Part shown: positions 1,554 through 37,427 of the stretch, piece by piece
How the letters are laid out: each line of letters begins with the position of its first letter
Numbering within the stretch: position 1 is the stretch's first letter
Made by a program: the position numbers and the translations under genes
Assembly (NCBI GenBank): GCA_028870995.1
Contig: JAGWOI010000016.1
Location: 1-53,127 of the forward strand
Reading direction: 5' to 3'
DNA: 53,127 nt
From: Candidatus Omnitrophota bacterium
GTDB taxonomy: Bacteria > Omnitrophota > Gorgyraeia > Zapsychrales > Fredricksoniimonadaceae
The notes under the pieces: generated by a model
Seen by the model: only the letters and a program-made list of their open reading frames with translations
What the model was told of the DNA's origin: nothing
Database searches by the model: none

Positions 1554-2384
1554 ATGGACTTCAATGAGAAACGGTTTAGCTATATAGCTAATAAAGATAA
1601 AAAAGCTGAAAGCTTAACTTCACTTGACAAAGATGGGAATAATCGAAACAAACTCAAATGCGCTTGCAGGCCAATGAGCCTCATTGGAGCTAGAGAGTCC
1701 GAGGAACGCTGGCTACATCTTCGGGTATATTGCAAAAGATGGGTTTGCCCCAAATGCGGCCCCCAAAAAGCAAGTAAGCTTAGAAAAGCAATTATTAAAA
1801 AGGCTTCTGAGAAAGATTTAAGACGCCTATTAACCCTTACACTTGATCCGTCAAAGTGTAAGGCTGAAGAGTCAATCCCATATATCAAAAAATGCTGGAA
1901 TAAAATGCGGACTTACCTAAAACGGAAGTTTGGTAAAAATATCTCTTTTATTGCAGTTTTAGAGCTTCAAAAAAGCGGCTATGCTCATTTGCACATATTG
2001 ATCGATAGATATGTTGATCAAGCCTGGGCCTCTGAAGCTTGGCAAGCCATTGGAGGCGGACGGATTGTTCATCTAAGATCTGTGGATATCCACAGGGTAA
2101 CCCATTACCTTTCAAAATACCTCACCAAATCCATGTTCCTTGAGCATTATGGAAAAAACCGCCGTTATACAACCTCAAGAGACCTCACTCTAAAAGATGA
2201 GGATTTAAAGCCAAAAATTAAGACAACTTGGAGACTCTTAAACTGCTCCATAGAAAGCCTCCTTAAAATGGGCGAATTCGAAGCCCTTAATAAGGAAGAA
2301 GATTTTTCAGGGAATTTAAGGAGCTTTGAAACCTTTTTTTCTTTAATTGAAAGATTTGATTTAAAAGATTTTGTTTTGAAATAA
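1554..2384 (+). CDS. Rolling-circle type HUH replication initiator
   Basis: A 276-residue protein with the three motifs of HUH Rep nucleases in order: TLTLDPS near residues 94-100 (motif 1), HLHIL at 145-149 (the metal-binding HUH motif 2) and YLSKYLTK at 185-192 (motif 3, with Tyr185 or Tyr189 as the nicking tyrosine). A cysteine cluster before motif 1 (C36, C38, C60, C65, C68, in CKRWVCPKCG) suggests a zinc-bound N-terminal domain, as seen in Rep proteins of plasmids and ssDNA phages. It would nick an origin and prime rolling-circle synthesis, possibly at the structured region just upstream. The start lacks a strong ribosome binding site. It sits in an integrated element with a serine recombinase, so the element may replicate after excision. 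Confidence 0.8.
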   Translation: MDFNEKRFSYIANKDKKAESLTSLDKDGNNRNKLKCACRPMSLIGARESEERWLHLRVYCKRWVCPKCGPQKASKLRKAIIKKASEKDLRRLLTLTLDPSKCKAEESIPYIKKCWNKMRTYLKRKFGKNISFIAVLELQKSGYAHLHILIDRYVDQAWASEAWQAIGGGRIVHLRSVDIHRVTHYLSKYLTKSMFLEHYGKNRRYTTSRDLTLKDEDLKPKIKTTWRLLNCSIESLLKMGEFEALNKEEDFSGNLRSFETFFSLIERFDLKDFVLK

Positions 2385-2749: not shown

Positions 2750-2778
2750 CCTTTTATTTTAAAAACGGAGAAAATATA

Positions 2779-4323
2779 ATGAATAAAGCCGTCATATACT
2801 CCCGTGTTTCAAGTAAAGAACAAGACCAAGATGGATTTTCCATCCCTTCTCAAATAAAACTGCTTAAAGATTACGCCTCTAAAAATCAGCTTGAAATTGT
2901 TCGAGAATTTATAGATGTAGAAAGCGCTAAAAAAGCAGGGCGCGAAAATTTTAATTTAATGCTTCAATTTCTTAAGAAAAATCCTCATGTAAAAACCATC
3001 CTTTGTGAGAAGACGGATCGCTTATCCAGAAACTTTAGGGATATTGCTACTTTGGATGACCTCGTAAATCAAACTGGTTTAAACATCATTTTAGTCAAAG
3101 AAAATACCACTATTAATCAGTACTCTAAATCACATGAAAAACTAGTCTTTGGATTTAAAGCCTTAATAGCTAAGAATTATGTTGATAATCTTTCTGAGGA
3201 AACTCGTAAAGGAATGTTGGAAAAGGCCGAGCAAGGTATTTATCCTAGCGGCTCTCCTATTGGCTATAAAATTGACCCTACAAGCCGTCAGCATGTATTT
3301 GATCCTGTAAAGGCACCTTATGTTAAAAAAGCTTTTGAAATGCTCGCTTCCGGCTCCTATTCAATGGAAATGACTTGTGATGTCCTTTATAAGGATGGTT
3401 TAAGGTCTAAAAAAAATACAAGAATGGGTACAGGCGCATTAGACAAGTTTATTCACAATCCTTTTTACTATGGAGCCTTCCGCTTTAAAGAGAAACTTTA
3501 TGCAGGAACTCATCAGCCTCTGATTAGTAAAGAACTCTTTGATCAGACCCATAATACTTTGTCTGCAAAGTATCGTCCCCATATTACCCGAAAGGGCTTC
3601 GCTTTTAATAATCTACTTATTTGCGGAATTTGTGATTGTAGAGTATTAGGAGAGCAAAAGAAAGGTAGATATAACTACTACCATTGCACATTCTCTAAAG
3701 GCCGTCATGCAGAAGTTGGTTATATTCCTGAAAATCGTTTATCGGGTATGTTTGAAGATCATGTCTCTAAAGCCACTATTATTGATCCTATGTATCATTG
3801 GCTCAAGAGGTTGGTTTGGGAAGCTTCTCAGGATAGGGCTAAATTTCAAGATAACAGGCTATCTGCGCTCCAATCTAAATTGAAGCAAGCTGATGAACGT
3901 TTAAGCAAATTAATTGATTTAAGAGTCGATGATAAGATTAATGATGAAATATTTAAAATTAAGAATAATGAACTAACTGAATCCATTGTCGGCCTTAAAG
4001 CACAAATACACGAAGCAGAGAACATTGATCCCAATTTTTATGAAAAAGGAATAAAAACCCTCGAACTCTCTAAATCCTTATATCCTGAATATCTTACGAG
4101 AAATTACGATGGGAAGGCTGAAATTCTAAAAAAGATAGCTTCGAACTACATCATAAATGACGTAACTATATGCCCCACATGGAAAAAGCCCTTCGACCTA
4201 ATGGCCAAAGGGCTCTCTCACTCTATATGGCTCCCCCGCGAGGACTCGAACCTCGGACCCAGTGGTTACGATCTGACTCCGATTACTCGGAGAGTCGGAC
4301 TTTCTCTTCGCCCGGTCGATTAG
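2779..4323 (+). CDS. Large serine recombinase, C-terminus running into tRNA-Asn
   Basis: The start is set at 2779 (MNKAVIYSRVSS), with GGAG at 2767-2770; a frame start at 2737 lies inside the preceding gene and lacks one. The N-terminal resolvase domain holds the catalytic serine in YSRVSS (Ser11) and the KTDRLSRNFRD arginines; the recombinase domain follows, then a zinc ribbon (CGICDCRV...YYHC, about residues 280-305) and a long coiled coil (about 350-415). This is the domain order of phage/ICE large serine integrases. The last ~45 codons are the antisense of a tRNA terminator, tRNA-Asn exon 2 and the end of its intron (WLPREDSNLGPSG), so the stop codon is supplied by the chromosome and would change on excision. 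The element therefore integrates at tRNA-Asn. Confidence 0.88.
   Translation: MNKAVIYSRVSSKEQDQDGFSIPSQIKLLKDYASKNQLEIVREFIDVESAKKAGRENFNLMLQFLKKNPHVKTILCEKTDRLSRNFRDIATLDDLVNQTGLNIILVKENTTINQYSKSHEKLVFGFKALIAKNYVDNLSEETRKGMLEKAEQGIYPSGSPIGYKIDPTSRQHVFDPVKAPYVKKAFEMLASGSYSMEMTCDVLYKDGLRSKKNTRMGTGALDKFIHNPFYYGAFRFKEKLYAGTHQPLISKELFDQTHNTLSAKYRPHITRKGFAFNNLLICGICDCRVLGEQKKGRYNYYHCTFSKGRHAEVGYIPENRLSGMFEDHVSKATIIDPMYHWLKRLVWEASQDRAKFQDNRLSALQSKLKQADERLSKLIDLRVDDKINDEIFKIKNNELTESIVGLKAQIHEAENIDPNFYEKGIKTLELSKSLYPEYLTRNYDGKAEILKKIASNYIINDVTICPTWKKPFDLMAKGLSHSIWLPREDSNLGPSGYDLTPITRRVGLSLRPVD
4183..4214 (-). terminator. Rho-independent terminator of tRNA-Asn
   Basis: On the minus strand AGCCCTTTGGCC pairs over 12 positions (two G-T) with GGTCGAAGGGCT around an ATTA loop (4187-4214) and is followed by TTTTT. 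It lies 14 bases after the tRNA CCA and inside the recombinase frame of the opposite strand, so the mobile element appears to carry the replacement 3' end and terminator for the tRNA. Confidence 0.8.
4228..4268. other. Probable attachment site of the left mobile element (tRNA-Asn 3' end)
   Basis: The AT-rich element with its serine recombinase ends exactly at the 3' half of tRNA-Asn, and base composition changes across this point. tRNA 3' ends are common attachment sites. The crossover cannot be placed precisely because the other junction, which should repeat part of this sequence, lies outside the window. Confidence 0.55.
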
Positions 4324-4476
4324 ACTTAGGGCGGCGGGTGTAAAGTCTCTGCACTTGCCCTCCTCTACCTTACGGTGAGAATGCTAGCTCAGGATTGTCC
4401 GCCATACTTTGTGGCGGATTTCCCTGACTTAGCCCGCTTGTCACTCCAGCGTTTCCGCTAGAGGCTGCTAACTTTA
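4269..4476 (-). ncRNA. Group I self-splicing intron (IC3-like), 208 nt, no ORF
   Basis: The insert breaks the anticodon loop between bases 35 and 36. The core words resemble those of cyanobacterial/plastid tRNA-Leu introns: GTCAGGGAAATCC (P), GGACAATCCTGAGC (Q), AAGTGCAGAGACTT (R) and GAAAGTCCGACTCT (S). The 5' exon end GGCTGT pairs with intron GCAGCC with the expected U-G at the splice site (P1), the adjacent intron GTTA pairs with exon 2 TAAC (P10), and the intron ends in G. These pairings fix both splice sites. It encodes no endonuclease, so if it was mobile the enzyme came from elsewhere. Confidence 0.9.
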
Positions 4477-4503
4477 ACAGCCACTTGCTCTACCTACTGA
4501 GCT

Positions 4504-4517
4504 ACAGGGGAATAAAT
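4504..4517. repeat. 14-bp direct repeat, tRNA-side copy
   Basis: ACAGGGGAATAAAT, identical to 4834-4847. Its first eight bases are the (complement of the) tRNA-Asn 5' end. Confidence 0.8.
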
Positions 4518-4530
4518 CTATATAAAGAGC

Positions 4531-4779
4531 CTAAACTTCTAAAAACATTCTATTCAAATATGCCCGGCCATGACCGGTTTTAAAATAACGTTCTCGCTTC
4601 CTGGCAAACTCTTCGCTTTCGTGTTGTTCAAAATAAATCAGATCGTATGGTCTATTAGACCTGGTAGATTGATTCTTCCCCTCATTGTGTTCTAACAATC
4701 TTTGATCGGGGCTTTTACCAGTAAACCCTACATAACGTTTGCCATTCCCCTTACTTCTTAAAACATAAACATAGTACAT
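4531..4779 (-). CDS. GIY-YIG superfamily nuclease, UPF0213/YhbQ-like
   Basis: An 82-residue single-domain protein. It begins MYYVYVLRSKGNGKRYVGFTG, giving the GIY and YIG equivalents (YVYVLRS...RYVGFT), then RLLEHN with the catalytic arginine and histidine region, YDLIYFEQHES with the metal-binding glutamate in EE(F)A, and the ARKRERYFKTGHGR tail typical of the family. Stand-alone enzymes of this size have poorly known DNA targets. GGGAG in the upstream hairpin is the ribosome binding site. The gene sits between a 14-bp direct repeat at the 5' end of tRNA-Asn, in the same orientation and probably in the same transcript, which suggests a mobile cassette. Confidence 0.85.
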   Translation of the reverse strand: MYYVYVLRSKGNGKRYVGFTGKSPDQRLLEHNEGKNQSTRSNRPYDLIYFEQHESEEFARKRERYFKTGHGRAYLNRMFLEV

Positions 4780-4886: not shown

Positions 4887-4914
4887 ATTATACTGTAAAA
4901 GTCTCAGAAGTCAA
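4887..4914 (-). promoter_or_regulatory. Sigma70-type promoter for GIY-YIG/tRNA-Asn
   Basis: On the minus strand TTGACT (4909-4914), a 16-base spacer and TATAAT (4887-4892). Transcription would start near 4880. Before the cassette insertion it would have given tRNA-Asn with a leader of about 40 bases. The -35 box lies in the last codons of recR. Confidence 0.7.
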
Positions 4915-5503
4915 CCAATCTGCGGGAGTTCATGGACATGGTCAGCGTTGAGATGTCCACGTACTCCACCGAGGAGCCGACTGGGATGCCTAAGCCAATG
5001 CGGCTGGTTTTGACCCCTAACTTCTTGAGTTCCTTGCCTATATACAGGGCCGTCATCTCGCCTTCGGCATCGGGGTCGGTGGCGATCACGACCTCCGCAA
5101 TCCCCTCATCCTTGATGCGGTCCATGAGCTTGGGCAGATTCAGATCATCCGGCCCCCGGCCTTCTGCGGGCGAAATGTGGCCCAGCAGCACATAATAAAG
5201 ACCGCGGTAACTGCCGGTGCGCTCAATGGCGAGCAAATCCTTGGGGCTTTCCACCACACAAATGATCTTTTTATCGCGGCTGCCATCGGCGCAGATAAGA
5301 CAGAGTTCCTGCTCGCTTAGATGATTGCACCGCTTGCAAAAACGCAAGCCTTCCTTTAACTGCTGAATATTGTCGGCCAGGGCCTTGACCTCCTGCGCGT
5401 CCTGGGCCAGCATCCAATAGATGATGCGCTCGGCGCTGCGGCGGCCGATGCCGGGAAGCTTACTCAACCTCTCAATTAAGTTCTCGATGAGTTTTGGGTA
5501 CAT
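4904..5503 (-). CDS. recR: Recombination mediator RecR
   Basis: A 199-residue RecR of normal length, which with RecF/RecO loads RecA at gaps in damaged DNA. Visible in order: the helix-hairpin-helix LPGIGRRSA (16-24), a four-cysteine zinc finger (C56, C59, C68, C71 in CKRCNHLSEQELCLIC), a Toprim domain with VVESPKDLLAIE and the ATDPDAEGE acidic motif near residue 141, and the C-terminal IGLGIPVGSSVEYVDISTL segment. It begins seven bases after dnaX. The usual ybaB gene between dnaX and recR is missing. No Shine-Dalgarno is visible, so translation is probably coupled to dnaX. Confidence 0.95.
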   Translation of the reverse strand: MYPKLIENLIERLSKLPGIGRRSAERIIYWMLAQDAQEVKALADNIQQLKEGLRFCKRCNHLSEQELCLICADGSRDKKIICVVESPKDLLAIERTGSYRGLYYVLLGHISPAEGRGPDDLNLPKLMDRIKDEGIAEVVIATDPDAEGEMTALYIGKELKKLGVKTSRIGLGIPVGSSVEYVDISTLTMSMNSRRLVDF

Positions 5504-10375: not shown

Positions 10376-10466
10376 AAGCGAAAAAGGTAAACTACCTCGA
10401 AAGAGTAGGACGCAAAGCCGTGAGCCTAAACTTTATCTGGGGATGAAGCAAGGTTGTCTGGTTGCC
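10376..10466 (+). ncRNA. Cyclic-di-GMP-I (GEMM-I) riboswitch
   Basis: The sequence follows the GEMM-I aptamer: AAAGGTAAACTACC, the GAAA-capped P2 hairpin CTAC-CTCGAAAGAG-TAG, the near-invariant GGACGCAAAGCC, then CCTAAACTTTATC...GATGAAG forming P3 (CTTTATC with GATGAAG) and the closing AAGGTTGTCTGGTTGCC strand that corresponds to the tetraloop receptor and ligand-binding region. It lies about 105 bases before a small secreted pilin-like protein on the same strand. It senses cyclic di-GMP and should tie that gene to surface-attachment signalling. Confidence 0.92.
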
Positions 10467-10481
10467 GTGTTATTATACGTT

Positions 10482-37350: not shown

Positions 37351-37427
37351 TGGTGGCGGGGAGTGGATTTAAACCACCGACCTGTCGGGTATGAACCGAT
37401 TGCTCTATCAGGCTGAGCTACCCCGCC
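37351..37427 (-). tRNA. tRNA-Met(CAU), elongator type
   Basis: The minus strand folds as acceptor GGCGGGG/CCCCGCC, D-arm GCTC...GAGC, anticodon stem ATCGG/CCGAC (first pair A-C mismatched) with loop TTCATAC, T-arm GGTGG-TTTAAAT-CCACT and an encoded CCA. The fully paired first acceptor base pair argues against an initiator tRNA; the loop context GGTTCATACCCG resembles Bacillus elongator tRNA-Met. A tRNA-Ile2 read as lysidine cannot be fully excluded, but is less likely. Confidence 0.92.

What the first reader, a model, noticed from the sequence alone, without database searches (positions are those of the whole stretch)
4269..4476. Group I intron in the anticodon of tRNA-Asn(GUU)
A 208-nt intron splits the anticodon between bases 35 and 36. 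P1 with a U-G pair at the splice site, P10, the terminal G and P/Q/R/S-like core words are all visible. Known bacterial tRNA introns that I can name are in Leu(UAA), Arg, Ile(CAU) and fMet; an asparagine host with this position is one I do not recall.
Basis: partly seen in the sequence, partly recalled or inferred. Interest (0 to 1): 0.78.

Follow-up and report, generated by a model that had tools for sequence, protein, structure and literature searches.

The report
Self-splicing intron in asparagine tRNA gene
The only asparagine tRNA gene found in this Omnitrophota bacterium is split inside its anticodon by a small self-splicing RNA (a group I intron); it belongs to a known kind, but the same tRNA site carries such introns in many bacterial phyla, in two archaeal contigs and in some probable phages.

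Summary
On the minus strand, 208 nt (4476..4269) split tRNA-Asn(GUU) between U35 and U36. Rfam RF00028 (group I intron) matches at 68.1 bits, E 3e-15. P1 has six pairs including the U·G at the splice site, P10 has four, the last base is G, and the core helices covary across 37 relatives. Removing the 208 nt gives a perfect tRNA-Asn. No uninterrupted tRNA-Asn was found in the 94.6%-complete genome, so splicing is very probably required.

The host is not a one-off. In the class, 22 genomes are sequence-verified and about 34 of 92 are split at this exact site; intron-free tRNA-Asn sits beside recR in relatives, even in the same genus. The site is also occupied in Nitrospirota, Patescibacteria, Clostridia, Burkholderiaceae, Planctomycetota, cyanobacteria, two Pacearchaeota contigs and probable phage contigs. 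About 20 members carry an HNH-like ORF in loop L1; the window's copy has none.

Best reading: an ORF-less member of a site-specific, homing group I intron lineage; a new member of a known kind. Papers I could reach name no tRNA-Asn host, but a 2025 preprint on Patescibacteria tRNA introns could not be read. Splicing is untested.

The parts
4477..4511 (-). 5' half of tRNA-Asn(GUU), positions 1-35, ending ...CUGU (anticodon bases 34 and 35)
   Evidence: joined exons fold as tRNA-Asn(gtt)
4269..4476 (-). 208-nt group I intron (ORF-less), first base U, last base G
   Evidence: RF00028 68.1 bits E 3.1e-15; covariation; z -5.5
4228..4268 (-). 3' half of tRNA-Asn(GUU), positions 36-76, with encoded CCA
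4463..4468 (-). internal guide sequence GCAGCC, pairs with exon 4482..4477 GGCUGU to form P1 with U·G at the 5' splice site
   Evidence: U·G kept in 67 of 67 tRNA-Asn introns compared
4469..4472 (-). GUUA, pairs with 3' exon UAAC (4268..4265) to form P10
4445..4462 (-). P2 hairpin, 7 pairs, GAAA tetraloop (4455..4452)
   Evidence: L2 fits GNRA in 36 of 37 relatives
4433..4437 (-). P3 5' strand GCGGG, pairs with 4338..4334 CCCGC
   Evidence: 100% of cells paired, 5 of 5 pairs covary
4389..4427 (-). P4 (4427..4422 with 4394..4389) enclosing P5 (4418..4412 with 4404..4398)
   Evidence: P4 100% paired, 4 of 6 pairs covary
4298..4347 (-). P7 (4347..4343 GACUU with 4302..4298 AAGUC), the guanosine-site helix, pseudoknotted with P3; P8 (4333..4329 with 4313..4309) lies inside
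   Evidence: P7 98.9% paired, its variable pair covaries A-U/U-A
4275..4296 (-). P9 hairpin with GUAA tetraloop (4286..4283)
   Evidence: L9 fits GNRA in 37 of 37
4904..5503 (-). recR, conserved upstream neighbour of tRNA-Asn, used to identify the orthologous empty site
   Evidence: tblastn

Best explanation
[quoted passage not shown] The precursor tRNA would fold the intron core. P1 places the 5' splice site U35|U at a U·G pair, exogenous guanosine bound in P7 attacks it, and the freed 3'-OH of U35 attacks after the terminal G, guided by P10, to give mature tRNA-Asn. The copy is an ORF-less member of a site-specific mobile lineage: other members carry an HNH-like homing endonuclease ORF in loop L1, which presumably cut intron-free tRNA-Asn genes so that the intron was copied in. 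Shown by sequence: exon and intron anatomy, covariation, sole copy found, same-site relatives, orthologous empty sites, ORF-bearing siblings. Inferred: self-splicing, guanosine use, cutting by the HNH proteins, and ORF loss in this copy.
For: RF00028 full-length match 68.1 bits, E 3.1e-15. Exact P1, P10 and terminal G. Covariation of P2, P3, P4, P8 and the last P7 pair over 37 same-site introns, 0 of 500 shuffles and far above slid controls. Compared with the same-genus intron L045 (80% identical): 8 pairs changed on both sides with pairing kept, 0 broken. No other tRNA-Asn found in the genome. 22 genomes, the window's included, sequence-verified at the same site. Intron-free tRNA-Asn beside recR in the same genus (L266) and in other families (L267-L271, L273). 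About 20 same-site introns carry a roughly 100-140 aa ORF with an HNH-like motif between the 5' splice site and the guide sequence; Pfam HNH E 4e-4 and 7e-4, just under the curated cut-off, while the third ORF tested had no Pfam match. ORF presence changes at least 14 times on the intron tree.
Against: No splicing data. The genome is 94.6% complete and in 59 contigs, so a second, intact tRNA-Asn in a missing stretch cannot be fully excluded. The HNH assignment is weak by Pfam score and has no NCBIfam match. The window's own intron holds no endonuclease, so its mobility is only inferred from relatives. IC3 subtype was judged from architecture, not with subtype models. The core tree rests on about 210 columns and several deep forks are open.
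Confidence: 0.93

Rival explanations
1. A decayed intron in a dead tRNA copy: the tRNA-Asn used by the cell lies elsewhere.
For: The genome is a 59-contig assembly, 94.6% complete, and some other expected tRNAs are also missing from it (Cys, Ile(GAT), Leu(UAA)), so missing stretches exist. Two relatives (G009, G026) show both a split and an intact tRNA-Asn match.
Against: All exon stems are intact. All core helices are intact, with compensated changes relative to the same-genus copy. No other tRNA-Asn was found in the genome. The neighbouring gene is the conserved recR, so this is the ancestral locus.
Confidence: 0.04
3. The intron is purely vertically inherited and no longer part of any mobile lineage; similarity of site across phyla reflects convergent targeting of the conserved anticodon stem-loop.
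For: The window intron has no ORF and falls in a clade of Omnitrophota introns (85/85 support). The five fMet introns also form their own clade (98/92), as stable site-bound lineages would.
Against: Presence and absence differ within one genus (intron in G000, G002, G004 and G006; intact gene in G005). ORF-bearing and ORF-less forms interleave (at least 14 changes). Some intron groups join different phyla: Pacearchaeota with Omnitrophota 96/91, Planctomycetales with a member of the window's class 96/95.
Confidence: 0.2

Closest known systems
Azoarcus tRNA-Ile(CAU) and Agrobacterium tRNA-Arg(CCU) group I introns (IC3)
   Same: About 200-nt ORF-less group I intron in a bacterial tRNA anticodon loop; P2 with a GNRA loop, no large P5 extension, P9 with a GNRA loop. 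Recalled from own knowledge; hosts and phyla as cited in PMC4033280.
   Different: Host is tRNA-Asn(GUU), insertion 35/36; relatives carry an HNH-like ORF in L1.
[quoted passage not shown]
   Same: Group I intron inside a tRNA anticodon loop, usually ORF-less (PMC4033280; ORF state from own knowledge)
   Different: Different tRNA and position; described as old and stably placed, whereas the Asn site is patchily occupied within a genus.
Cyanobacterial tRNA-fMet intron (Synechocystis 6803 and others)
   Same: Mobile tRNA group I intron, some with an ORF for an anticodon-region endonuclease (Bonocora and Shub 2001, cited in PMC3984707)
   Different: Different host tRNA; the Asn-site ORFs look like HNH, whereas the fMet enzyme is of another fold (own knowledge).
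[quoted passage not shown]
   Same: tRNA genes missed by annotation because of group I introns
   Different: Different hosts; no Asn.
Patescibacteria tRNA group I introns (Nakagawa et al. 2025 preprint, cited in PMC12641178)
   Same: [quoted passage not shown] Patescibacteria are among the phyla with the Asn insertion here
   Different: Text not held: whether it covers tRNA-Asn 35/36 is unknown to me.

Membership tests
Group I catalytic intron (RF00028) | Conserved core P3-P8 with the P3/P7 pseudoknot | tested here: met
   RF00028 68.1 bits, E 3.1e-15; P3 100%, P4 100%, P7 98.9% and P8 92.9% of cells paired with covariation
Group I catalytic intron (RF00028) | P1 with U·G at the 5' splice site and terminal G at the 3' splice site | tested here: met
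   window and 67 of 67 same-site introns
Group I catalytic intron (RF00028) | Guanosine-initiated self-splicing | not testable with these tools
   Needs RNA; anatomy compatible
Subgroup IC3 (bacterial tRNA type) | Short P5 without P5abc, GNRA loops on P2 and P9, no long P7.1/P7.2 insert | tested here: inconclusive
   Window architecture fits and L2 fits GNRA in 36 of 37, L9 in 37 of 37, but no subtype model was available
tRNA-Asn(GUU) gene | Cloverleaf after joining exons, anticodon GUU | tested here: met
   ARAGORN on joined exons; U1-A72 and G73 seen in the sequence
Homing intron (encodes its own endonuclease) | Endonuclease ORF inside the intron | tested here: not met
   Window intron has none: L1 is only UAAA before the P10/guide stretch; the HNH query hits only core sequence shared with ORF C-termini. 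About 20 siblings have the ORF.
Homing intron (encodes its own endonuclease) | Cleavage of the intron-free allele | not testable with these tools
   Needs protein assay

The most novel reading that the evidence does not exclude
tRNA-Asn(GUU) position 35/36 is an undescribed, cross-domain hot spot for mobile group I introns with their own HNH endonuclease family in L1. It reaches archaeal tRNA genes (Pacearchaeota) and phage tRNA genes, neither of which was listed as a group I tRNA host in the surveys I could read, and the window holds an ORF-less stage of that homing cycle.
Probability: 0.5. Interest if true: 0.62.

Novelty: new member of a known kind. Interest (0 to 1): 0.42.

Why it matters
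Standard tRNA finders miss these genes, so genomes of uncultured phyla look as if they lack tRNA-Asn. One tRNA site occupied from Omnitrophota to Pacearchaeota and phage-like contigs, with and without an endonuclease ORF and with exact empty sites, gives a natural series for testing how group I introns home, lose their endonuclease and persist in an essential single-copy tRNA.

Tried and rejected
BLAST of the locus against plasmids and isolate phages gave nothing. I considered the adjacent GIY-YIG ORF (4531-4779) as the intron's endonuclease: rejected, because it sits outside the intron and also flanks intron-free tRNA-Asn (L267, L269). A direct repeat of the tRNA 3' end elsewhere in the contig, which would bound the integrated element, was not found. 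A subtype test for IC3 and reading the 2025 preprint were not possible. Kinship of named genomes is not reported by the tool; the phylum was read from matching loci: L084 (Ca. Omnitrophota) and the same-order relative G078 share identical coordinates.

Full report
Observation. On the minus strand of the window a tRNA gene runs from 4511 to 4228 and is interrupted by 208 nt (4476..4269) between U35 and U36 of the anticodon GUU. Rfam's group I intron model matches at full length, 68.1 bits, E 3.1e-15, the best of three gathering-level hits in 53 kb. ARAGORN without introns does not see the gene. Joining the exons gives tRNA-Asn(gtt) with every stem paired and CCA encoded.

Anatomy. P1 is GGCUGU/GCAGCC with the U·G pair at the 5' splice site; P10 is GUUA/UAAC; the last intron base is G. 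P2 is a 7-pair hairpin with GAAA, P9 ends in GUAA, and P3, P4, P5, P7 and P8 are complete. RNA folding energy is 5.5 standard deviations below shuffles. Over 37 ORF-less same-site introns the named structure, pseudoknot included, pairs in 86.4% of cells against 65.6% in shuffles; 389 cells are changed on both sides against 127 shuffled, and slid controls fall to 33-45% paired. L2 fits GNRA in 36 of 37 and L9 in 37 of 37. Against the same-genus copy L045, 20% of bases differ, eight pairs changed on both sides with pairing kept, and none is broken: the core is under selection.

Is it needed? The genome (2.34 Mb, 59 contigs, 94.6% complete) has 37 uninterrupted tRNA matches. All those outside the window were fetched and typed, the one within it (37351-37427) is tRNA-Met, and none is Asn. 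A search with the joined tRNA finds only the two halves in the window plus weaker hits to other tRNAs. AAU and AAC codons are read by GUU (established knowledge), so splicing is very probably required. Some other isoacceptors are also absent from the assembly, so a missed copy cannot be fully excluded.

Who else has it. 45 of the 92 genomes searched (the window's own and its relatives) have a group I intron match. Twenty-two genomes, the window's included, are sequence-verified at the same tRNA-Asn site, and exon halves flanking RF00028 hits bring the total to about 34 (my count). About 31 carry an uninterrupted copy, eleven of them checked with ARAGORN. Intact and interrupted genes both sit just downstream of recR, including in the same genus (L266 against L045, L050 and L063), so the empty site is orthologous. 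Of 24 genomes behind such loci all have an RF00028 match, 21 above the cut-off, though not every match in those genomes is at the Asn site. Viral contigs show it too.

Mobility. About 20 same-site introns are 530-690 nt long because a roughly 100-140 aa ORF lies between the 5' splice site and the guide sequence, that is in L1. These ORFs share a zinc-knuckle/HNH-like motif (CxxCGY...LEFHH...LCANCHREIHA). Pfam HNH scores are just under the curated cut-off for two of three tested and NCBIfam has no match, so 'HNH homing endonuclease' is a good but unproven reading. On the intron tree ORF presence changes at least 14 times. L045, ORF-less, is nested among ORF-bearing introns of its own and other families (99/97). 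The window intron falls in an Omnitrophota clade of mixed ORF state (85/85). Its L1 is a few bases, and the HNH query hits it only through core sequence that the ORF C-terminus overlaps. I therefore read it as an ORF-less stage of a homing lineage; direct loss in this copy is inferred, not shown.

Literature. Surveys name Leu(UAA), fMet, Ile(CAU) and Arg hosts, Arg(TCT) and Leu(TAA) in Beggiatoaceae, and some short cyanobacterial insertions. Full-text searches for group I intron with tRNA-Asn found no bacterial case. Hausner 2014 states that all phage introns known then were in protein genes, and Nawrocki 2018 found all 39 archaeal group I introns in rRNA. [quoted passage not shown] it may already describe this site. 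Hence 'new member of a known kind', with the breadth of the Asn site as the more interesting part.

Noticed in passing
window 2776-4323 (+) and 1554-2384 (+): Serine recombinase (Pfam Resolvase, Recombinase) whose frame runs on into the tRNA-Asn 3' end and stops inside the intron, next to a G2P-like rolling-circle replication initiator: probably an element integrated at the 3' end of the same tRNA gene. Recombinases also follow intron-free tRNA-Asn in relatives (L267, L268, L270, L273).
   Followed up: partly
window 4531-4779 (-): Small GIY-YIG ORF just upstream of the tRNA; also beside intron-free tRNA-Asn (L267, L269), so apparently not linked to the intron.
   Followed up: partly
L069 1909-2184 and L070 (Pacearchaeota contigs): Group I introns in archaeal tRNA-Asn genes, same 35/36 site; L069 lies among archaeal-looking genes (an aIF2-beta-like ORF by eye) and scores 83.1 bits; L070 keeps part of the HNH-like ORF. 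They join Omnitrophota introns on the tree (96/91).
   Followed up: partly
L185, L194, L203, L221, L239, L246, L213 (IMG/VR contigs): tRNA-Asn group I introns on viral contigs, several within long tRNA arrays (RF00028 62.5 bits in L194, 66.9 in L239); L213 carries a LAGLIDADG ORF, and L239 has a free-standing HNH-like ORF beside the tRNA.
   Followed up: partly
L053, L054 (relatives G050, G055): Group I introns that appear to split the T arm of tmRNA, forming their own clade.
   Followed up: no
L041, L047, L051, L059, L061; L035: Group I introns in tRNA-fMet (five relatives) and tRNA-Tyr (one): this phylum is rich in tRNA introns.
   Followed up: partly
window 10376-10469 (+): c-di-GMP-I riboswitch, 62.9 bits.
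   Followed up: no
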